The notes beneath the pieces are model-generated. The model ran no database searches, was not told where the DNA came from, and saw nothing but the letters and a program-made list of their open reading frames with translations. From Bacillota bacterium (GTDB taxonomy: Bacteria > Bacillota_C > Negativicutes > CTSoil-072), in contig JAGFXW010000088.1 in NCBI GenBank assembly GCA_017861495.1, positions 1-11,578 on the forward strand: a stretch of DNA of 11,578 nucleotides, read 5' to 3'. The translations under genes were made by a program, and so were the position numbers. This document shows, one piece after another, positions 3,284 through 11,578 of this stretch; positions within the stretch are counted from its first letter, which is position 1; each line of letters starts with the position of its first letter.

Positions 3284-4141
3284 TTAGTTAGATGCGCTCA
3301 AAATTATATTGTCAATCAAACGGGTTTTGCCGAAGCGGACTGCCAGCGCCAGGAGAGCTTTGTCCGTCAGTGTCCCGGTAGTTTGCAAATCGGGATACTG
3401 GTAAATTTCCACATAATCAATTTCCGCCCGTGGTTCGGCTTGGATCGTATTGCAAACCAGTTCGCGAAGAACGGCAATATCACGCTCACCCTTTTTTACC
3501 GCTTGGGCGGCTATTTGCATGCTCTGCGACAGAACGAGCGCCGCCCGCGCTTCTTCCGGTGCCAGATAGGCGTTGCGAGAGCTTAAGGCCAGTCCGTTCG
3601 CATCCCGTACGGTTGGAACCATGTTGATTTTGAGGTTCATATTCAAATCCGCAACCATCCGCTGAATGACCAAACATTGCTGGGCGTCTTTTTGACCGAA
3701 GAAAGCGATATCCGGCGTTACGATATTGAACAGTTTTGTGACGACTGTCGCGACGCCCTGAAAATGGCCGGGGCGGGAAAGACCGCACAGTTTATCGGTT
3801 ATTCCCGTGACATTGACATAGGTTGCAAATCCTGGCGGATACATTTCGGCCGGTTGGGGATGGAAAATTGCATCGACGCCGACTCCTTCCGCGAGGAGGC
3901 AATCATTTTCAAACTTACGGGGATAGGCGGCAAAATCTTCGTTCGGACCGAATTGGGTAGGATTAACGAAGATGCTGGCAACTACAATGTTACAGGCCGA
4001 TTTAGCTTCCTGCATCAAGGTAAGATGGCCTTCATGCAGGGCTCCCATCGTCGGGACCAAACCAATCGTTTTTCCGGCTTGCCGGGCTTCCTGAACAAAA
4101 ACGCGCATATCGGTAACGGTTTTTATAATTTTAATCATCAT
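3284..4141 (-). CDS. panC: Pantothenate synthetase (pantoate--beta-alanine ligase)
   Basis: It joins pantoate and beta-alanine with ATP, through a pantoyl-adenylate, to form pantothenate, the precursor of coenzyme A. At 285 residues it has the normal length. The ATP-binding signature is clear: PTMGALHEGH (HIGH-like) near residues 30-39, NPTQFGPNEDF, the central GHFQGVATVV and FFGQKDAQQ, and the KMSKS-equivalent region with SSRNAYL. The start ATG at 4141-4139 overlaps the TGA of the upstream DUF2520 gene (ATGA), showing translational coupling. A second ATG follows directly at 4138-4136, so the N-terminus may be one residue shorter. AGGAAGGG lies just upstream. Neither panB nor panD is present in the window. 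Confidence 0.97.
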   Translation of the reverse strand: MMIKIIKTVTDMRVFVQEARQAGKTIGLVPTMGALHEGHLTLMQEAKSACNIVVASIFVNPTQFGPNEDFAAYPRKFENDCLLAEGVGVDAIFHPQPAEMYPPGFATYVNVTGITDKLCGLSRPGHFQGVATVVTKLFNIVTPDIAFFGQKDAQQCLVIQRMVADLNMNLKINMVPTVRDANGLALSSRNAYLAPEEARAALVLSQSMQIAAQAVKKGERDIAVLRELVCNTIQAEPRAEIDYVEIYQYPDLQTTGTLTDKALLALAVRFGKTRLIDNIILSASN

Positions 4142-5025
4142 AAATCCCTTCCTTTTTCCAGTGTGATCGATAAATCAAAAGCTTGCGCCTCGTTAATGGA
4201 GGCTTTTTCTTGTGCGATTTGCAACGTGTACAAACCAAGCGTTCGATACAGTTCTGCCTCGCCGCCTTTGAACCCGGCAAGCGCTTTCGTATGGCCCTCG
4301 ATTGTCGGAATATCGCCGCGGCTGATTGGGCCGGTCAACGCATCCGGCAAACCGACTTTTTGCAAATTGGTCAGAGTTCCGTGAATCAGAGGCGCTAAAG
4401 CCTGCAGCGCTTCTGTGGAGGACAGCCCGAAAGTTTCATACATTTTGGCGGCGCAGTAGGTCAAGGAAACCAAGTAGTTGGAAGCGACACAAGCCGCCGC
4501 ATGGTACAGGGAACGGTCTTTTGCCGGAACAAAAAAACTGTGCCCTTCCAAGGCGGTGATAATTTTCTGTCCGGCCGCGATGGCTTGTTCATCGCCGTCT
4601 AGGGCGAAATACGATCCAGGGAGGTTCGTTTTGGCTGTTTCAATATCAGCAAACGATTGTAAAGGGTGGAGCGATCCGGTGAACGCCCCTAATCGCTGGG
4701 CCGGGCTGAGGATTTCCGCCGTCATGGATCCGCAGGCGTGAAACACGGATTGGCCAGGGCGAAATCCGCCGGCTGCGGCAATCTCACCGACGACTTGGCC
4801 GATAAAACGGTCCGGTACGGTCAGGAAGATAAAATCAGCCTTCGGGGTCACTTCACCCGGAGAAGTGGTCGCAATTGCCCCGGGAAATTGCTCTGCCAGA
4901 CGGGAAGCCGATTCTTGGGTCCGGCTGGCGATTCCCGTAATAGGGTATCCGCGGCAATGGAGTAAAGTTGCTAATGCACTGCCGACTTTGCCGGCGCCAA
5001 TGATAGCGATTGCTGGTTTTGTCAA
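4138..5025 (-). CDS. DUF2520 / Rossmann-like NAD(P)-binding protein, possible ketopantoate reductase
   Basis: The protein has an N-terminal dinucleotide-binding domain: IAIIGAGKVGSA carries GxGxxG (residues about 7-12), and an Arg after the second strand (GIASRTQ) suggests NADP preference. Other family landmarks are FLTVPDRFI, FHACGSM, GSLHPLQSF, then a helical C-terminal DUF2520 domain with YHAAACVASNYLVSL and GPISRGD. The fold resembles ketopantoate reductase and 6-phosphogluconate dehydrogenase. I place the start at TTG 5025 because AAGGAGGAG (5040-5032) lies 6 bases ahead and the conserved domain begins directly; this gives 295 residues. The in-frame ATG at 5091 would put the ribosome binding site inside the gene and start within the leader terminator. 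Overlap with panC points to pantothenate synthesis. It could supply the pantoate-forming reduction, like the PanG enzymes described in Francisella, but membership is from memory. Confidence 0.85.
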   Translation of the reverse strand: MTKPAIAIIGAGKVGSALATLLHCRGYPITGIASRTQESASRLAEQFPGAIATTSPGEVTPKADFIFLTVPDRFIGQVVGEIAAAGGFRPGQSVFHACGSMTAEILSPAQRLGAFTGSLHPLQSFADIETAKTNLPGSYFALDGDEQAIAAGQKIITALEGHSFFVPAKDRSLYHAAACVASNYLVSLTYCAAKMYETFGLSSTEALQALAPLIHGTLTNLQKVGLPDALTGPISRGDIPTIEGHTKALAGFKGGEAELYRTLGLYTLQIAQEKASINEAQAFDLSITLEKGRDL

Positions 5026-5038
5026 AACGAACTCCTCC

Positions 5039-5240
5039 TTGTGCAGGGAGCCGCCAACTGTCCGGAAAAGACAAAAAAACCTTTCGGACAAATTCCGAAA
5101 GGCAGGGACATACCTTATACCTTCCCGTCTCAGTCACATCGGATCCAAGCGGATAAAAATTGTATTGGTTAACCCGTGATACGGCGCAGGGCTGTTGTGC
5201 AGCTCATAACGATGCCGCCAACAGACGCAGTATCAGCCTA
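5039..5240 (-). ncRNA. Structured 5' leader of the pantothenate operon (pan-motif-like candidate)
   Basis: Downstream of the promoter the RNA can form a long hairpin: UGAUAC (5235-5230) with GUAUCA (5182-5177), GCG with CGC, CUGUUG (5224-5219) with CAACAG (5197-5192), a bulged A (5198), and GCGGC (5218-5214) with GCUGC (5203-5199). The core UUGGCGG...CUGC-A-CAA is repeated after the terminator: UUG (5057-5055) with CAA (5041-5039), GCGG (5054-5051) with CUGC (5046-5043), again with the same bulged A (5042), and running straight into the AAGGAGGAG ribosome site. Known pan-motif RNAs sit upstream of pantothenate genes and use hairpins with conserved bulged adenosines. I infer, but cannot confirm, that this is a member. 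Confidence 0.55.
5073..5102 (-). terminator. Intrinsic terminator inside the pan operon leader (attenuator)
   Basis: On the minus strand CCTTTCGGA pairs with TCCGAAAGG (5102-5094 with 5088-5080) around a 5-base loop, followed by seven U (5079-5073). It lies between the promoter at 5241-5269 and the first pan start codon at 5025, with no gene before it, so it can only act on the leader transcript. This is the hallmark of premature termination control. Confidence 0.85.
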
Positions 5241-6160: not shown

Positions 6161-6391
6161 GTGAAACGCGAAAGAGGCAGAAAACCGAAGAAAAAAGTAT
6201 GTAGTTTCTGCGTTGATAAAGTTGCAGCCATTGATTATAAAGATGTTCCTAAATTGCGTCGTTATGTTACGGAACGCGGAAAAATTTTACCGCGCCGTAT
6301 TTCTGGTAACTGCGCGAAACATCAACGTCAATTGACTTTAGCGATTAAACGGGCGCGTAATATTGCGCTGTTGCCGTTTACTGCAGAATAA
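6161..6391 (+). CDS. rpsR: 30S ribosomal protein S18, zinc-binding (C+) form
   Basis: S18 pairs with S6 on the platform of the 30S subunit. The 76 residues include [28 protein letters not shown] and the end [12 protein letters not shown]. It carries CSFC near the N-terminus and NCAKH further on, giving a Cys-x2-Cys plus Cys-x2-His set, as expected for the zinc-binding form of this protein. I use GTG 6161, 9 bases after AGGAGG (6146-6151). A TTG at 6158 directly before it, spacing 6, is equally possible and adds one residue. This is the last host gene before the accessory region; the usual downstream host genes do not follow. Confidence 0.96.
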
Positions 6392-6402
6392 CAGAAGTTA
6401 AA

Positions 6403-6500
6403 CCATATTGTACCATAGCAGTCCATAGACGTTGATAATACAGGCGTTTGTGGACTGCTTTAGTTTTATATTACCCCATATCGTACCATAGAAAACCATA
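6403..6500 (+). repeat. Two triplets of 10-bp-phased CCATA boxes (candidate attachment or recombinase-binding site)
   Basis: A 16-base sequence at 6403-6418 recurs at 6476-6491 with one difference (CCATATTGTACCATAG and CCATATCGTACCATAG). Each copy begins a series of three CCATA boxes exactly 10 bases apart: 6403, 6413, 6423 and 6476, 6486, 6496. One helical turn of spacing places all three on the same DNA face, as expected for cooperative protein binding. The pair spans the border between rpsR and the accessory region, so binding or crossover by a site-specific recombinase is a reasonable inference, not a demonstration. Confidence 0.5.
6417..6465 (+). terminator. Intrinsic terminator after rpsR
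   Basis: AGCAGTCCATAGACG (6417-6431) pairs over 15 bp, with two G-U pairs, with CGTTTGTGGACTGCT (6445-6459); the loop is 13 bases and TTTAGTTTTAT follows. Its left arm contains one of the CCATA boxes. Confidence 0.7.
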
Positions 6501-6513
6501 CAGTTTTCTTTTC
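6490..6513 (+). terminator. Small A/T-rich hairpin with T-run
   Basis: AGAAAAC (6490-6496) pairs with GTTTTCT (6503-6509), followed by TTT. The stem is weak. It may add to the rpsR terminator or may simply result from the third CCATA box. Confidence 0.3.
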
Positions 6514-6567
6514 CGGAGGCAGTACAGATGGCAGTAAAGGCATTATTGAACCTTGAAAACATCATAA

Positions 6568-6750
6568 GAAAGTGATGAATTTTTCGCGGAAGTTGCGATG
6601 GATTTTCCCGTGACGTTGGGAGCCTTCGGCAGTATCTCCAAGAGTGGGGATGCTTCCCCAGAAGTGCGGAATGACCGGAATTTAAATCCGGCCATCGTGA
6701 CCACAAGTGGCTACGGTTTCTCCGCTTGTGGAGAAAAAGGGAATGAATAG
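6568..6750 (+). pseudogene. Possible C-terminal remnant of an IS200/IS605-type TnpB
   Basis: Between a TAA (6565-6567) and a TAG (6748-6750) an open frame of 60 codons has no convincing start. Its last part reads LGAFGSISKSGD... and ends TSGYGFSACGEKGNE. Short tails with an 'ACG' element, directly followed by hairpins, are common at the 3' end of tnpB genes, where the coding tail overlaps the guide-RNA scaffold (family knowledge from memory). The RuvC and zinc-finger parts of TnpB are absent, so any such gene is only a relic. An unrelated non-coding structured sequence is the main alternative. Confidence 0.3.
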
Positions 6751-6806
6751 CAGTAAGCCCCTAACGTCGGTTTAACCGACACCCTTGTGGCATAAGGGGG
6801 TAATTT
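6645..6806 (+). mobile_element. Hairpin series, possible IS605-type right end with reRNA scaffold
   Basis: Hairpins follow one another closely: TGGGGA/TCCCCA (6645-6660), CCGGA/TCCGG (6675-6691), TTTCTCC/GGAGAAA (6717-6736), GTCGGTT/AACCGAC (6766-6780, one-base loop) and CCCTT/AAGGG (6782-6798), then GGTAATTTCA. The order of tail codons, a short stop-proximal linker and GC hairpins resembles the right end of IS200/IS605 elements. No left end or transposase is visible, so the element would be a fragment. Confidence 0.3.
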
Positions 6807-6970
6807 CAATTGACACCCTCCGTCGGTGGTGTGTTTTGAACCCACTTCAGGGGGTAGCCGAATTTTCGGCAGACCATAAGGCACATCATTCTATAGAGAG
6901 CCCCCTAAATTTAACTTAGGTAGCGTTGCAAAAAGTTGCAACGTTTGAGAGAAGGCCGCTAAAAAAATAA
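6807..6970. other. Gene-free spacer with further hairpins
   Basis: No gene is supported here. It holds the inverted repeats GCCGAA/TTCGGC (6857-6870), CCTAA/TTAGG (6904-6920) and CGTTGCAA/TTGCAACG (6924-6943, 8 bp, loop AAAG). Their function is unknown. They could be stem-loops of a replication origin, a transfer origin or an RNA. Confidence 0.5.
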
Positions 6971-7175
6971 ATATAGCCTCTATACTCTTTTTTTTCAGGG
7001 AAGATAGGGAAGAAATCGCCTTTGAAGCCTTATAAATACTGGATTTGTGACGCAAAAAAAATAGGGTAGATACAGGGAAGAAAAATAAAAACAAAATGCT
7101 GTTGAACCATTGTGAACACTGGGATTATGGCACTTTAAAACAAAAAATAAAATAGGGAAGAAAAATAGGGTAGAA
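6971..7175 (+). repeat. Left iteron-like repeat cluster
   Basis: Six copies of AGGGWAGA stand in the plus orientation at 6997, 7006, 7063, 7074, 7154 and 7167. The first two are exactly 9 bases apart (AGGGAAGAT then AGGGAAGAA). Positions 6971-7019 (49 bp) recur inverted at 11127-11174, differing by one substitution and one T. A second motif, ACTGGATT, lies between boxes at 7038-7045, with a diverged copy near 7117. The surroundings are A/T-rich. The layout matches initiator-binding iterons of a replication origin; this is inference. Confidence 0.7.
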
Positions 7176-7310
7176 ATAACCCAAAACCATTCCTATAGGT
7201 TCGGAAGAGTGTTCCGTTCCCTCAACTCGTGGAGAGACAGAAAAAACGGATACTCTAGCCGGTTACGATACGCCTTACTTCATTATTGGATAACGTGGTG
7301 TAAAAAAGTA
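7176..7310. other. Gene-free upstream region of the MerR-like gene
   Basis: No coding frame is convincing. Short inverted repeats are present, notably CGGAA/TTCCG (7202-7216) with a 5-base loop. It separates the left repeat cluster from the promoter at 7311. Confidence 0.4.
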
Positions 7311-7339
7311 TTGACAGAAAGGATATGCAGAGGTATATT
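7311..7339 (+). promoter_or_regulatory. Strong promoter of the accessory operon
   Basis: Perfect TTGACA (7311-7316), 17-base spacer, TATATT (7334-7339). It precedes the MerR-like gene. Confidence 0.88.
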
Positions 7340-7347
7340 TAACTTGC

Positions 7348-7361
7348 AACTAGATGTAGTT
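7348..7361 (+). promoter_or_regulatory. Candidate operator overlapping the transcription start
   Basis: AACTA (7348-7352) and TAGTT (7357-7361) form an inverted repeat with a 4-base gap, about 9 bases after the -10. The position suits repression of the promoter, for example by the MerR-like protein encoded next, but no binding evidence exists. Confidence 0.35.
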
Positions 7362-7381
7362 CTAACGAGGTGATTGTTAAA

Positions 7382-7894
7382 ATGGGAAATGTTGCTGTTA
7401 AATATAAAGAGCCTCTGCGAATGGTGATTCTAAACATGACTCCGGATGAGCTTTTGAAAAAAGTGAAAAATGATTTTGATATTACAATTGGACGGTCGAC
7501 ACTAAGAAATTATGTAAATAATAAATTGGTACCTGAACCAGAGCAAAAGGTTTTAGGTCGTGGCCTTGGCAGGGAAGCGACTTACCCGCCAGGATCAGAA
7601 GAAGAAGTGGCTGCGGCAAACTACCTTGTTAGCACTCGGAAATTTATAGTCATGATAATTGCGGAAAGCAGGGCCGCATATAATCGGATTAAGGAAGCTA
7701 ATGAAACAGCGGATTTCTTAGAGTTTTACATTAAATTTAACACATTAGCATCTGATAAAAAATACGATGAATTACATCATTATGTGCTCCAGCTTAAAAA
7801 CAGAGATTTTGACACCGCTAGGTTATGGTATTTTGGATTAACAGAGGTAAGACTAACTAGAAATTTATTAGAGTATGAACGATTAAAAAAATAA
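7382..7894 (+). CDS. MerR-like winged-HTH regulator
   Basis: The first half looks like a MerR-type DNA-binding domain: MTPDELLKKV, then a helix-turn-helix around IGRSTLRNYVNNKLV and a wing-like stretch GLGREATYP, ending near the middle of the 170 residues. The second half is helical, without the cysteines or ligand domain of classical metal or drug sensors, and is unrecognised. I start at ATG 7382 because GAGGTGAT (7367-7374) lies 7 bases upstream; a GTG at 7370 would overlap that site. It is driven by the strong promoter at 7311 and followed by a terminator, so it is mostly monocistronic. It probably controls the element's own genes. Confidence 0.75.
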   Translation: MGNVAVKYKEPLRMVILNMTPDELLKKVKNDFDITIGRSTLRNYVNNKLVPEPEQKVLGRGLGREATYPPGSEEEVAAANYLVSTRKFIVMIIAESRAAYNRIKEANETADFLEFYIKFNTLASDKKYDELHHYVLQLKNRDFDTARLWYFGLTEVRLTRNLLEYERLKK

Positions 7895-7898
7895 CTTT

Positions 7899-7924
7899 GC
7901 CGTTATAAACGGCTTTTCTTTTTA
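7899..7924 (+). terminator. Terminator after the MerR-like gene
   Basis: GCCGTT (7899-7904) pairs with AACGGC (7908-7913), followed by TTTTCTTTTTT. An A-run on the other side could allow action in both directions. Confidence 0.8.
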
Positions 7925-7994
7925 ATTTAAAGTTCCAATTAGTTGAAGTTGTATTTAGGTGGAGGAATGTTTGCGTGACGAAGGAGGTGAAGTG

Positions 7995-8165
7995 ATGATA
8001 CAACCATTGACTTACACGGCTAAAGAATTACCGGGCATATTGCATATTAGCCGGACAACTGTGTTTAAACTTATTGCTGATGGAAAAATAAAATCTGTTC
8101 GCGCAGGGAGAAAGATCATTGTCCCAGCCTGGGCGATTGATGAATTTCTTGGCCAAGCAAAGTAA
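7995..8165 (+). CDS. Excisionase-like helix-turn-helix protein
   Basis: A 56-residue protein of the HTH_17/excisionase type: YTAKELPGILHISRTTVFK forms the helix-turn-helix, followed by the family's wing RAGRKIIVPAWAIDEFL. Such proteins bend DNA to direct excision of integrated elements, or act as small regulators. I choose ATG 7995 because AAGGAGGTGA (7981-7990) precedes it by 4 bases; upstream in-frame codons would place that site inside the gene. No integrase is encoded in the window, so a role as recombination directionality factor is inferred from the family. It is followed 14 bases later by the next small gene. Confidence 0.85.
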   Translation: MIQPLTYTAKELPGILHISRTTVFKLIADGKIKSVRAGRKIIVPAWAIDEFLGQAK

Positions 8166-8179
8166 GGAGGCTATGCGAG

Positions 8180-8377
8180 ATGAAAGATGAAGATCGGCTG
8201 GCATATTATTTAGCTGAAATGAGTTGTTGGCAGCGGCACATGTATGACAATTTGTTTGTTATTATGCAACCGCAATCCATCAAGGAACAATGCGCTCTTG
8301 CTTGGTTGTCTATGACAGAGATTGAGACCGCAAAGAATATTCTTGTCATGGCGGCCAGATTAAGAGCCATGCAATGA
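8180..8377 (+). CDS. Small protein of unknown function
   Basis: A 65-residue frame starting at ATG 8180 has AAGGAGG at 8164-8170, 9 bases ahead. The product begins MKDEDRLAYYLAEMSCW and appears fully helical. I do not recognise it. It lies between the excisionase-like gene and the zinc-finger primase gene in the same orientation with short gaps, which suggests the same transcript. The good ribosome site and tight packing support it being real. Confidence 0.7.
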   Translation: MKDEDRLAYYLAEMSCWQRHMYDNLFVIMQPQSIKEQCALAWLSMTEIETAKNILVMAARLRAMQ

Positions 8378-8388
8378 AGGCAAAAAAA

Positions 8389-8412
8389 ATAACTGCCCTG
8401 GACGGCAGTTAT
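8389..8412 (-). terminator. Hairpin before the primase gene; terminator on the minus strand
   Basis: ATAACTGCC (8389-8397) pairs perfectly with GGCAGTTAT (8404-8412). On the minus strand the stem is followed by a run of eight T, an intrinsic terminator shape. On the plus strand no T-run follows, and the stem ends right against the ribosome binding site (8413-8420) of the next gene, so it may instead affect its translation. Confidence 0.55.
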
Positions 8413-8430
8413 AAAAGGAGATGATTAAAT

Positions 8431-9000
8431 ATTCCTTACCCTCAGTATAGCCTAATCGAACAGGTTAAGCAAGAACTGCCGTACCTTCCCGGCTACGAGC
8501 TAAAGCAGAAAGGGCGCAAGTCTTGGGCCTGTTGTCCGTTTCACGGTGAAAAAACTCCATCGTTTGTCATTGATACGGCCAAAGGGCGGGCACACTGTTT
8601 TGGCTGCGGATGGCACGGGGATGGAATAGACCTTGCTTTGAAGGCCACTGGATGGAATATTAAACAGCTTGCTGCAGACCTAGGAATTATGCCAGAGCCA
8701 AAAGCCACCGGCGCCGATCGGCGTGAGTGGCAAAAGCGGATCGAACAAGAAAAGAAACTAAGAGCCTTTGCACAAGCCATAGAATTGGACATTAACCATA
8801 CTTATACTCGCTTAGCGGCGATATTGCGGCGAACCTATAAAGTGACCGTATTGGAGAGCGAAGAAGATATGGACCGGCCAGAAGTAGCAATGGCCTTTGA
8901 TTTACAGGCAATAATCCCATTTTTATTGGATGAACTGGAAAGTAAAGAACCAGGGCGACGGTTATGGGCTTTGGATAAATCACGGGAGTTGATTAGATGA
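8431..9000 (+). CDS. CHC2 zinc-finger primase fragment (probable ATT start)
   Basis: The frame encodes the N-terminal zinc-binding domain of DnaG-type primases: CPFHGEKTPSF and HCFGCG give ligands C35, H38, C56 and C59. This domain recognises the single-stranded template in priming. It lacks the TOPRIM catalytic part; the remaining residues (about 80-189) are helical and unrecognised. From TTA 8425 (after a TGA at 8422) to TTG 8638 there is no in-frame ATG, GTG or TTG, although the zinc finger lies entirely in that interval. ATT 8431 is 9 bases after GGAGA inside AAAAGGAGATGAT (8413-8425), nearly the perfect anti-16S match, so I infer AUU initiation. Starting at TTG 8638 would lose the domain. 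A sequencing error or frameshift from ATG 8421 is the alternative. The next gene starts one base after the stop. Confidence 0.72.
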   Translation: MPYPQYSLIEQVKQELPYLPGYELKQKGRKSWACCPFHGEKTPSFVIDTAKGRAHCFGCGWHGDGIDLALKATGWNIKQLAADLGIMPEPKATGADRREWQKRIEQEKKLRAFAQAIELDINHTYTRLAAILRRTYKVTVLESEEDMDRPEVAMAFDLQAIIPFLLDELESKEPGRRLWALDKSRELIR

Positions 9001-9001
9001 T

Positions 9002-10915
9002 ATGAACACTAAGGATATGGAAGAATATCTTGCCGGCCTTCCCCCAGGAGAGCGGGAGGAAGTTGCCAAGCCCTCTCTGAAAGTGGTTAAAAGTCCTACC
9101 CAGGCCGAAGATGCTCCGCACCCTTACGAAGCATGGAAGCAGTTGTTTTGGGGCACCGGGTACACAGTAGACCGTTACGGCTGCCTATGCCGTGTCAAAA
9201 TGGGGAACAAGGATAAAGGCGAGAAAGAAAGCGTTGTAAGGATGGCCAATTTTACTGCTAAGATTAGCCGGGAAGTTGTCAGGGACGATGGCCAAGACCG
9301 TAAGATGATGTTTGAAATTGACGGGATATTGAAGGGTGGGAGAAATCTTCCGGTTGCATTGGTACCGGCTGATAAATACACGGCTATGAATTGGCCGGTG
9401 GCGAACTGGGGAGCTGCAGCCAATATCATCCCGGGGACAGCTACAAAGGATACTTTACGATATGCTATTCAGACCACAGGCTTTGATTGTCCTAAGGAAC
9501 ATATCTACACCCATACCGGCTGGCGACAGATCGGCGGCAAGTGGGTTTATATTCACGGCAGCGGCGGTATAGGGGCTGACAATGTCAAGGTGGACCTCGA
9601 TGAAGCCAAGCTGATGAATTACTCATTACCGGCAATCGAATTGACACAAGAGGCCAAGAAAGAGGCAATAAGGGCCACCCTGGAATGTTTAGAGATTGGA
9701 CCGGAGGAAATAACTTGGCCGCTGTTGGCCACGATCTTTCTAGGGCCGTTATGCGAACCGATGCGAAAGGCGAATTGCGAACCAGCCTTTGTTCTATGGA
9801 TGGCTGGAATGACCGGTGCAAGGAAATCCACGATTACAGGCTTGTTTCTTTCCCACTATGGGAGCTTTACCGGGAAGGCGTTGCCAGGGAGTTTCAAGGA
9901 CAGTGAAAACACGCTAGAACGAAAAGCCTTCCTACTGAAAGATACGGTCTTTTGCATTGATGATTTCCATCCGGTTGGTACCCAGCAAGAAAAGCGACGA
10001 ATTGAGAAAATTGCCCATAGCATACTCAGAGGCTACGGCGACAGGGTAGGCCGGGGCCGGATGAACGCGGACACCAGTCTACGAGAAACCTACATACCCC
10101 GGGGATTATGTGTTGTAACCGGCGAGGATGTGCCAAACCTTGGCCAAAGCGCAACATCACGGATGTTCACACTGGAACTGCAGCGCGACGCCATCGATCT
10201 TGACCGGCTAACGGTAATGCAAAAGAAATCACATATATTGGCTGATTGTATGGCCGGTTATATTGATTGGCTGCGGCCACAGATCGACGAGTTGGCGAAG
10301 CGATTTAAAGACTTGTTCCCTGATCTTCGACATGCCGCGGCAGATAAGGCCGCTCATGGAAGGATCCCTGAAACCGTGGCCAGCTTGTATTTAGGATTTA
10401 GCTGCATGTTATCGTACTTTGAAGCGGTGAAGGCAATTACGGCAGCGGAGAAGGGCAGCATGGGAGCCAGGGCGTGGGAGCTTCTTGTGATGCTGGGAGA
10501 GCGGCAGGGACGAATGGTCTTTGAAGATGCACCGACAGAGAAATTCTTGACAGCCTTGCAGGAAATGATTGCAGCTAAAGAAGTGGTTATTCATAACTTG
10601 GTGGTTGATGAGATGGGCGAAACCGTTTCATGGGATGGAAAATCATCGAAAGAGAACTTTATCGGATGGAAAGATGACTTATATTATTATCTTTTGCCGG
10701 GGATGGTTTATAAAATGGTTTGTCAGTTTTTCCAGCAGCAAGGTGGCGTCTTCTCGGTGGGGCAAACTACCCTTTGGAAGCATTTAGAATCGGAAGGGAT
10801 GATAAAGACTATACGGGAAGGCAGCCAGGTAAGGCGGGTACATAATAAGCATATCCCATCGGCAGGAAAAAACGTAAAGGTGTTGTGGCTCAAGTTGGAT
10901 GCTTTAAAAATATAG
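9002..10915 (+). CDS. DUF927-like ATPase/helicase, probable replication protein of the element
   Basis: A 637-residue protein. The N-terminal half contains the DUF927-like segment IYTHTGWRQIGGKWVYIHG (about 168-186). The ATPase core follows: Walker A GMTGARKS (269-276), Walker B VFCIDDF (316-322), a sensor-1-like VVTGED (371-376) and a candidate arginine finger, R387 (SATSRMF). In the P-loop the second glycine of GxxxxGKS is replaced by Arg274, which is unusual. The C-terminal part, with SVGQTTLWKHLESEGMI, looks like a winged helix. DUF927 proteins occur with primases in plasmids and phages as replicative helicases. Here the gene follows the zinc-finger primase with one base between, and repeat clusters lie on both sides. 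The ATG at 9002 has only GGGAG 13 bases upstream, so coupled translation is likely. Confidence 0.8.
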   Translation: MNTKDMEEYLAGLPPGEREEVAKPSLKVVKSPTQAEDAPHPYEAWKQLFWGTGYTVDRYGCLCRVKMGNKDKGEKESVVRMANFTAKISREVVRDDGQDRKMMFEIDGILKGGRNLPVALVPADKYTAMNWPVANWGAAANIIPGTATKDTLRYAIQTTGFDCPKEHIYTHTGWRQIGGKWVYIHGSGGIGADNVKVDLDEAKLMNYSLPAIELTQEAKKEAIRATLECLEIGPEEITWPLLATIFLGPLCEPMRKANCEPAFVLWMAGMTGARKSTITGLFLSHYGSFTGKALPGSFKDSENTLERKAFLLKDTVFCIDDFHPVGTQQEKRRIEKIAHSILRGYGDRVGRGRMNADTSLRETYIPRGLCVVTGEDVPNLGQSATSRMFTLELQRDAIDLDRLTVMQKKSHILADCMAGYIDWLRPQIDELAKRFKDLFPDLRHAAADKAAHGRIPETVASLYLGFSCMLSYFEAVKAITAAEKGSMGARAWELLVMLGERQGRMVFEDAPTEKFLTALQEMIAAKEVVIHNLVVDEMGETVSWDGKSSKENFIGWKDDLYYYLLPGMVYKMVCQFFQQQGGVFSVGQTTLWKHLESEGMIKTIREGSQVRRVHNKHIPSAGKNVKVLWLKLDALKI

Positions 10916-11174
10916 CCTATCTAGTTTTTCAGGGAAGATAGGGAAGAAACTACATTTGATTTATTATGAACACTAAGTTTTAGGGAAGACGTTAAAAAAA
11001 TAGGGTAGACACAAAAACCGCGTAGTTACTGGATTTGTAAGATTTTCTTCCCTGTTTTCCTGCCCTATCTTCCCTGTAACAAAAAAATAGGGTAGACGCG
11101 AAAGCCACGTGAATACTGGATTAATAGCGATTTCTTCCCTATCTTCCCTGAAAAAAAGAGTATATAGGCTATAT
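10913..11174. repeat. Right iteron-like repeat cluster
   Basis: AGGGWAGA boxes occur on the plus strand at 10931, 10940, 10982, 11002 and 11089, and on the minus strand at 11045-11053, 11067-11075, 11132-11140 and 11141-11149, with a degenerate one at 11058-11066. Pairs spaced exactly 9 bases recur (10931/10940, 11132/11141). Two similar units follow each other, 10993-11080 and 11083-11158, each with AAAAAAATAGGGTAGAC, an ACTGGATT box and inverted TTCCCT boxes. The end 11127-11174 is the inverted partner of 6971-7019; 10913-10949 is a partial direct copy starting at the stop codon of the ATPase gene. Confidence 0.75.
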
Positions 11175-11220
11175 ATTCATAAATTAATGTTCGGCACAAC
11201 TGGCGAAAGGGAGGGGTAAA

Positions 11221-11454
11221 GTGGATAGACGGATTTTGTTTATAGTATGGGATGACGTTCCTGTAGTGGATCAATTCGGCACGGTACGCCAAGACCTGGA
11301 CAAAGAAGGGAAGATGGTGTATTGCAATGAGTGGCAAAAGAGAGGCTGCCCTAAACTACCATGTTGGCCATGCCGAACCTGCTGGCAAGGAAGGGTGTTT
11401 GACGAGTTTGTTCTCGAGGACGGGGGGCCGCAAAGAAGGGAGGATCAAGAATGA
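11221..11454 (+). CDS. Small cysteine-rich protein, unknown
   Basis: A 77-residue protein starting with GTG 11221 after GGGAGGGG (11209-11216). Five cysteines (35, 43, 48, 51, 54) are clustered, the last three as C-x2-C-x2-C in PCWPCRTCW, which suggests metal binding or a compact cysteine knuckle. The C-terminal 15 residues are charged. I do not recognise the family. Its stop overlaps the next start (ATGA), so the two small genes are translationally coupled and probably act together. Confidence 0.65.
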   Translation: MDRRILFIVWDDVPVVDQFGTVRQDLDKEGKMVYCNEWQKRGCPKLPCWPCRTCWQGRVFDEFVLEDGGPQRREDQE

Positions 11455-11578
11455 GCAGCGGGGTGGTTGTATGTATAAGGTGCGGATCATCGGCAGTGGA
11501 TATAGTGAAATGGGTTGATAATTGCGCAGTGATGCGCTGCAGCCATTGCGGTAATAGGGCGGCGACAGTGGGGTTTAC
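11451..11578 (+). CDS. Zinc-ribbon protein, N-terminal part (cut by window end)
   Basis: From ATG 11451, overlapping the previous stop, the frame stays open to the window end (42 codons). GGGAGG (11439-11444) lies 6 bases upstream. The peptide has CIRC (C8, C11) and CSHC (C30, C33) separated by 18 residues, the two knuckles of a zinc ribbon, with an extra C25. The rest of the protein lies outside. Together with the preceding cysteine-rich protein it suggests a pair of small metal-binding, possibly nucleic-acid-binding, proteins of the element. Confidence 0.65.
   Translation, partial: MSSGVVVCIRCGSSAVDIVKWVDNCAVMRCSHCGNRAATVGF

What the first reader, a model, noticed from the sequence alone, without database searches (positions are those of the whole stretch)
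6971..11174. Two iteron clusters flank the primase/ATPase operon and share a 49/48-bp inverted repeat
About fifteen AGGGWAGAH boxes lie only in 6997-7175 and 10931-11149. The left cluster is all in one orientation, the right one contains both. 6971-7019 and 11127-11174 are near-perfect inverted copies. This could be a double origin, with initiator binding on both sides allowing DNA looping, or a replicon that can be cut out as a unit. I know of no described element with exactly this repeat.
Basis: partly seen in the sequence, partly recalled or inferred. Interest (0 to 1): 0.7.

Follow-up and report, generated by a model that had tools for sequence, protein, structure and literature searches.

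The report
Two-site replication origin of integrated element
A mobile DNA element sitting in a bacterial chromosome appears to carry its own replication start, split into two groups of short repeats on either side of its helicase genes, a layout known from the small phage satellite P4 but here paired with a helicase of the type found in staphylococcal islands.

Summary
The repeats are real: 15 of 16 AGGGWAGAH boxes lie in two clusters (0.38 expected), and the 49/48-bp inverted repeat has one mismatch and one indel. A third copy of its edge block starts the right cluster, so the pairing is not exclusive. The 637-aa ATPase models as a SaPIBov1 Rep/SCCmec Cch-type helicase. In SaPIs the origin lies directly 3' of rep; the right cluster starts 16 bp after this gene. 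In 19 of 77 relatives examined the 400 bp 3' of the gene is repeat-rich (1% of control windows), with motifs that differ widely. A second, distal cluster of the same motif occurs in 3 of 28. Phage P4 has this plan: crr 3' of its primase-helicase gene, ori 5' of the operon. Best reading: a two-site replicon bound by the helicase's C-terminal domain. Looping is plausible but not new in kind; excision as an IR-bounded unit is unsupported. The "primase" shows only a zinc ribbon. Binding, looping and replication are inferred, not tested.

The parts
6391..6392 (.). likely left junction of the integrated element, just after the rpsR stop codon
   Evidence: DNA alignment with the close relative G074 (83% identity over 2128 columns) stops at window 6391; a plain change of gene order is not excluded; the right junction is outside the window
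6398..6500 (+). two 30-nt direct repeats (6398-6427, 6471-6500), possible att arm sites
   Evidence: 80% identical; function inferred
6971..7019 (+). edge block, copy A (left arm of the 49/48-bp inverted repeat)
6997..7175 (+). distal (5') iteron cluster: six AGGGWAGAH boxes, all +; ori-like site
   Evidence: six AGGGWAGA sites in 250 bp, 0 of 1000 shuffles reach that
7032..7125 (+). second motif RTRAAYACTGGATT, two copies (7032-7045, 7112-7125)
7311..7339 (+). promoter-like site TTGACA-17-TATATT (11 of 12) between left cluster and first ORF
   Evidence: 9 promoter-like sites found, 9.4 expected; this is the best-matching one
7382..7894 (+). 170-aa protein; 37 N-terminal residues match the MerR-like protein of the Sporomusa element
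   Evidence: the Sporomusa protein has a sub-threshold Pfam MerR match; the window protein has no family
7995..8165 (+). HTH_17 / excisionase-family DNA-binding protein, 56 aa
8180..8377 (+). 65-aa ORF, no family
8431..9000 (+). CHC2 zinc-ribbon protein of DnaG type, no TOPRIM domain found; no in-frame ATG/GTG/TTG before the zinc ribbon
9002..10915 (+). 637-aa Rep/Cch-type replication helicase (sub-threshold DUF927 match); C-terminal part winged-helix-like by secondary structure
10910..10956 (+). edge block, copy B, direct orientation, diverged
10931..11149 (.). proximal (3') iteron cluster: nine AGGGWAGAH boxes, five + and four -; SaPI-ori/P4-crr-like site, starting 16 bp after the helicase stop codon
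10966..11122 (+). second motif, three copies (10966-10979, 11022-11035, 11109-11122)
11127..11174 (-). edge block, copy C (right arm of the inverted repeat)
11221..11454 (+). next ORF, probably of the same element (77 aa, no family)
   Evidence: membership inferred

Best explanation
The window holds the replication module of an integrated, probably phage-satellite-like element in a chromosome close to G074 (class Negativicutes, class name recalled). The 637-aa protein is a self-loading origin helicase of the SaPIBov1 Rep/SCCmec Cch type. Its C-terminal winged-helix-like domain would bind AGGGWAGAH. The proximal cluster, directly 3' of the gene, is the SaPI-type origin, with iterons in both orientations where two hexamers could load. 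The distal cluster 5' of the operon is a second cis site bound by the same protein, so the two work like P4 crr and ori: bridged by the initiator (DNA looping) for initiation or copy control after excision. Shown here: the repeats, the predicted helicase fold, and the recurrence of a 3' site (often) and of a second site (in three relatives) with other motifs. Inferred: binding, melting, looping, excision and replication.
Against: Most relatives show no second cluster: it was found in 3 of 28 relatives (plus a weak 3-site one in L083) and convincingly in 1 of 15 non-window sets with other or longer flanks, where three more sets gave 3-site groups at high background. The test is limited: 16 of the 28 held 4 kb or more of 5' DNA. 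58 of 77 relatives had no repeat excess 3' of the gene by this measure. The covariation test is weak and nine tests were run without correction. The MerR-like or HTH_17 protein could be the binder in this element: the tblastn search also failed to link the HTH_17 proteins of the window and of L031, so its negatives are weak, and L065 carries an HTH_17 domain inside its integrase. No right end, integrase or empty site of this element could be seen. No AT-rich melting site stands out from the AT-rich clusters.
Confidence: 0.7

Rival explanations
1. Only the right cluster is the origin; the left cluster is an operator array through which the initiator (or the MerR-like protein) controls the operon promoter. 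Not exclusive: the left cluster could do both.
For: A strong promoter-like site lies at 7311-7339, 136 bp past the last left box; most relatives have only the 3' cluster.
Against: The left boxes do not overlap the promoter-like site; in the Sporomusa element the distal cluster is not next to the operon (2.9 kb inside attR); the left cluster repeats the composite layout of the right one (second motif, A-tracts).
Confidence: 0.3
2. The left cluster is the true origin and the right one an accessory site (the P4 assignment), the reverse of the SaPI assignment. A sub-case of the two-site reading.
For: In P4 the site 3' of alpha is annotated crr and the 5' site lies in the annotated origin; distal clusters are mostly one-directional in P4 (5 of 6), window (6 of 6), L031 (7 of 8) and L079 (5 of 6).
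Against: The closest structural relative with a described origin, SaPI Rep, and the Cch2 system have it 3' of the helicase gene; single-cluster relatives keep the 3' site; L065 has a mixed distal cluster (2 and 2) and four of four exact proximal boxes in one direction.
Confidence: 0.25
3. The 49/48-bp inverted repeat bounds a transposable or invertible unit.
For: Arms nearly identical, including spacer letters that copy B does not share.
Against: No transposase or recombinase recognised between the arms; a third, diverged copy lies inside; an exact 14-nt core of the block (TATAGCCTMTATAC) has no match in the 171 loci fetched by then. Target-site duplications were not tested.
Confidence: 0.06
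4. Binding sites of the MerR-like or HTH_17 regulator, unrelated to replication.
For: Both genes lie between the clusters; such proteins bind repeats (recalled).
Against: tblastn finds neither protein in the two-cluster loci L065 and L079, while the helicase is there; that search is not sensitive for short HTH proteins, and L065's integrase has an HTH_17 domain and L079 has other HTH proteins.
Confidence: 0.12

Closest known systems
Satellite phage P4 ori + crr
   Same: Two clusters sharing one iteron (type-1 repeat); one directly 3' of the primase-helicase gene with mixed orientation, one 5' of the operon mostly in one orientation; an excisionase/regulator gene in the operon; about 4.7 kb between clusters in P4, 3.8 kb here.
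   Different: P4 alpha fuses primase and helicase (passages of PMC7145576; TOPRIM-type primase by PMC4234260) and belongs to another helicase class (recalled); here a zinc ribbon and a Rep/Cch-type helicase are separate ORFs; the repeat letters differ; no sid, psu or delta homologue was recognised among the seven window ORFs scanned, and most of the element may be unseen.
SaPI / PICI pri-rep-ori (SaPIBov1 Rep)
   Same: Helicase fold over nearly the whole length including the C-terminal part; iterons directly 3' of the gene.
   Different: A second distant cluster; the associated protein is a DnaG-type zinc ribbon, while the SaPIbov1 and SaPI5 primases are of the archaeo-eukaryotic type.
SCCmec Cch / Cch2 replication operons
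   Different: Three iterons in one place in the Cch2-type element; no second cluster mentioned in the passages seen.
Sporomusa acidovorans 15.5-kb element (L031/L105)
   Same: MerR-like, HTH_17, zinc-ribbon and helicase genes in the same order; two clusters of one iteron.
   Different: Iteron GGTAACGYC; distal cluster at the other end of the integrated copy; tyrosine integrase and 22-bp att-like repeats seen; the two HTH_17 proteins did not find each other by tblastn.

Membership tests
SaPI/PICI-type Rep-ori | AAA+ origin helicase of the SaPIBov1 Rep/Cch fold | tested here: met
SaPI/PICI-type Rep-ori | iterons directly 3' of the helicase gene | tested here: met
   gene ends 10915, first box 10931; literature passages
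SaPI/PICI-type Rep-ori | two iteron sets flanking an AT-rich stretch | tested here: inconclusive
   four + boxes then two - boxes in the right cluster, but no clear AT peak between them
SaPI/PICI-type Rep-ori | primase gene beside or fused to rep | tested here: inconclusive
   CHC2 zinc ribbon found, no catalytic primase domain found
PICI element | int, repressor, xis, phage-interference genes, phage-dependent induction and packaging | not testable with these tools
   window ends before the right end; only an HTH_17/excisionase-family gene is seen
P4-like replicon | two clusters of one iteron flanking the replication operon | tested here: met
P4-like replicon | fused TOPRIM primase-helicase (alpha) | tested here: not met
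   separate zinc-ribbon and Rep/Cch-type helicase ORFs; no TOPRIM hit
P4-like replicon | initiator bridges the two sites by looping (recalled for P4) | not testable with these tools
   needs protein
IR-bounded transposon | transposase between terminal inverted repeats | tested here: not met
   none recognised among the ORFs between the arms that were scanned
IR-bounded transposon | target-site duplication | not tested
   no call made

The most novel reading that the evidence does not exclude
SaPI/Cch-type helicases, found here in records from many bacterial phyla and a few archaeal MAGs, include a two-site class whose members have independently kept or evolved a P4-like pair of cis sites, each pair sharing one iteron read by the helicase's C-terminal domain. 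P4 and SaPI replicons would then be two ends of one design, and the cluster letters would be a readable specificity code.
Probability: 0.35. Interest if true: 0.62.

Novelty: new variant of a known kind. Interest (0 to 1): 0.46.

Why it matters
It links a Rep/Cch-type helicase with the two-site ori/crr layout known from P4, gives many natural helicase-iteron pairs from which DNA-recognition rules of this family could be read, and predicts where the origin lies in a set of integrated elements seen in many bacterial groups.

Tried and rejected
Looked for the exact letters elsewhere. AGGGAAGATAGGGAAGAA: four viral contigs with one match each; a count of AGGGWAGA in those four loci found two or three boxes each and no larger cluster, and their genes were not examined. 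The same 18-mer: 0 of 380 genomes of the class of Sporomusa. A paired-box pattern: 0 in the near relative G074. AGGGWAGA counted in the 83 helicase loci forms no cluster, at most five scattered copies, so the test moved to each relative's own motif.

Single-protein scans of genome and viral contigs with the helicase found no relatives; an alignment of 22 sequences gave 80 kept loci (of 116) and 3.

GC skew is positive in every 400-bp window from 6300 to 11499 and gives no switch. Rfam: only the pan motif above gathering score, plus two sub-threshold matches. No tRNA in the window. A sequence search of the PDB gave only a weak match to Cch (E 0.025); the family was recognised by fold. L010, L011 (simple trinucleotide arrays) and L071 were left out of the 26 loci; L010 and L011 are counted as repeat-rich. 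L021 and L079 have iteron clusters but are not counted as repeat-rich, because part or all of the cluster lies before the stop codon. L004, L020, L023, L026, L056 and L074 had under 200 bp 3' of the gene and were dropped there. L083's second cluster (3 sites) was treated as weak. Marker-frequency analysis was not possible: no genome is held for the window.

Papers: passages seen of PMC7581432, PMC6092414, PMC9942202, PMC4234260, PMC8628076 and PMC7145576; other papers only as listings. P4 ori-crr looping was not found in the held library (searches; 88 not held); looping in P4 is recalled. No paper describing two iteron clusters for a DUF927/Cch-type helicase was seen in the listings of searches, which are capped lists from one library.

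On re-check I ran, added the weakness for HTH proteins, and moved the best explanation from 0.72 to 0.70, the MerR/HTH_17 rival from 0.10 to 0.12 and the operator rival from 0.35 to 0.30 (the last for consistency, not for a new fact).
Full report
OBSERVATION. AGGGWAGAH has 16 matches (0.38 expected, largest of 200 shuffles 4): six at 6997-7175, all +; nine at 10931-11149, five + and four -; one stray at 11307. 6971-7019 pairs with 11127-11174 with one mismatch and one indel. A diverged copy of the same edge block starts the right cluster in direct orientation (10910-10956), so three copies exist. A second motif (RTRAAYACTGGATT, up to 3 mismatches) occurs five times in the clusters, all on +. 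Four of the five lie at two fixed distances from a box: 26 nt from the box starts at 7006 and 10940, 20 nt from 11002 and 11089; the fifth (7112) does not. Twelve matches were found in the whole window against 5.4 expected (2 of 200 shuffles reach 12), so the motif is modest on its own.

SURROUNDINGS. The left part of the window is host: DAHP synthase, pheA-like, panC, rpsF-ssb-rpsR (names are my reading of the ORFs; no family search was run on them). DNA similarity to the G074 locus ends at 6391, the rpsR stop codon, a likely insertion edge, although a change of gene order is not excluded. The right end is not in the window and no genome is held for it. After the left cluster come a strong promoter-like site at 7311-7339 and ORFs for a MerR-like protein, an HTH_17 protein, a 65-aa protein, a zinc ribbon and the helicase. 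The zinc-ribbon frame has no ATG, GTG or TTG before its domain, and no TOPRIM hit was found, so calling it a primase goes too far.

RELATIVES. Of 84 loci (83 relatives and the window), 78 had at least 200 bp 3' of the gene. 20 of 78 (19 relatives and the window) exceed the 99% level of 2999 control windows, which 30 controls do; 58 relatives do not. Two of the 19 (L010, L011) are simple trinucleotide arrays. One search built a motif for 28 chosen relatives and the window. The letters differ widely, some relatives share one (L039 and L041; L031 and L005; L065 and L075), and in most the boxes stand in both orientations. A second, distant cluster of the same motif was found in L031, L065 and L079; L083 is weak. 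Exact-motif clusters reach 8, 4, 6 and (window) 6 sites in 250 bp, each 0 of 1000 block shuffles. In one search, 1 of 15 non-window sets, the Sporomusa one again, had a convincing second cluster; three others gave 3-site groups at high background. So one cluster is the rule and two the minority. Of five window genes searched by tblastn, only the helicase is found in L065 and L079. That search is weak for short HTH proteins: it did not link the two HTH_17 proteins of the window and L031, L065's integrase carries an HTH_17 domain, and L079 has other HTH proteins.

SPOROMUSA ELEMENT. L031/L105 holds MerR-like, HTH_17, zinc-ribbon and helicase genes, a cluster, a tail assembly chaperone, a 1193-aa protein that I read as tape-measure-like (its PHROG match has no known function), the second cluster, another HTH_17 protein and a tyrosine integrase. 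A 22-bp direct repeat at 8291 and 23763 of the joined stretch marks a 15.5-kb element, between genes that I read as phoP- and pstB-like (not searched). Identities to the window proteins are 46% over 37 residues (MerR-like), 35% (zinc ribbon) and 41% (helicase). On the circle its second cluster would lie 5' of the operon, as in the window.

SPECIFICITY TEST. Among 26 loci (325 pairs), similarity of iterons rises with identity of the helicase C-terminal part (residues 511-637: rho 0.151, p 0.025; partial on the AAA+ core 0.166, p 0.018; residues 565-637: 0.129, p 0.045), not with the core (-0.006, p 0.49) or the N-terminal part (0.089, p 0.14). The effect is small, nine tests were run without correction, and shared descent is only partly handled.

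P4. The P4 record annotates crr (4291-4590, ten type-1 repeats, six + and four -) 45 bp beyond the alpha stop codon, and six type-1 repeats at 9310-9413 inside the annotated origin, 5' of ORF88 and the operon. That is the plan seen here. The distal sites are mostly one-directional (P4 5 of 6, window 6 of 6, L031 7 of 8, L079 5 of 6), while L065 is 2 and 2. P4 alpha is a fused primase-helicase, so this works like P4 but is not a P4 member.

VERDICT. An iteron-based replication module with a SaPI-type origin helicase and a P4-like second cis site, in an integrated element. Function rests on homology and position. The inverted repeat is probably a by-product of shared edge blocks, although the near-identity of copies A and C over spacer letters remains unexplained and may reflect exchange between them.

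Noticed in passing
window 8421-8640: The zinc-ribbon frame lacks a standard start codon before its domain; ATT at 8431 follows a ribosome-binding-like AAGGAG, and an ATG at 8421 lies in another frame.
   Followed up: partly
window 6500-6960: About 460 bp without a clear gene between the likely junction and the left cluster; no Rfam match up to E 1.
   Followed up: no
window 9806-9829 (helicase residues 269-276): The Walker A-like motif reads GMTGARKS; G269 and K275 are invariant in the 70-sequence alignment, and its consensus GxTGxxKS lacks the usual glycine before the lysine.
   Followed up: no
window 5121-5221 (-): Rfam pan motif above gathering score, in front of the minus-strand genes at 3284-5091.
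   Followed up: no
L079:11700-12120: In Meiothermus luteus part of the iteron cluster lies inside the 3' end of the helicase gene, so those iterons are also translated.
   Followed up: partly
plasmid hits: Distant relatives of the helicase on Rhodococcus plasmids, mostly near record ends, are annotated telomere-binding protein.
   Followed up: no
window 6971-7019 and 11127-11174: Copies A and C of the edge block agree in spacer letters that copy B does not share, as if exchanged.
   Followed up: partly
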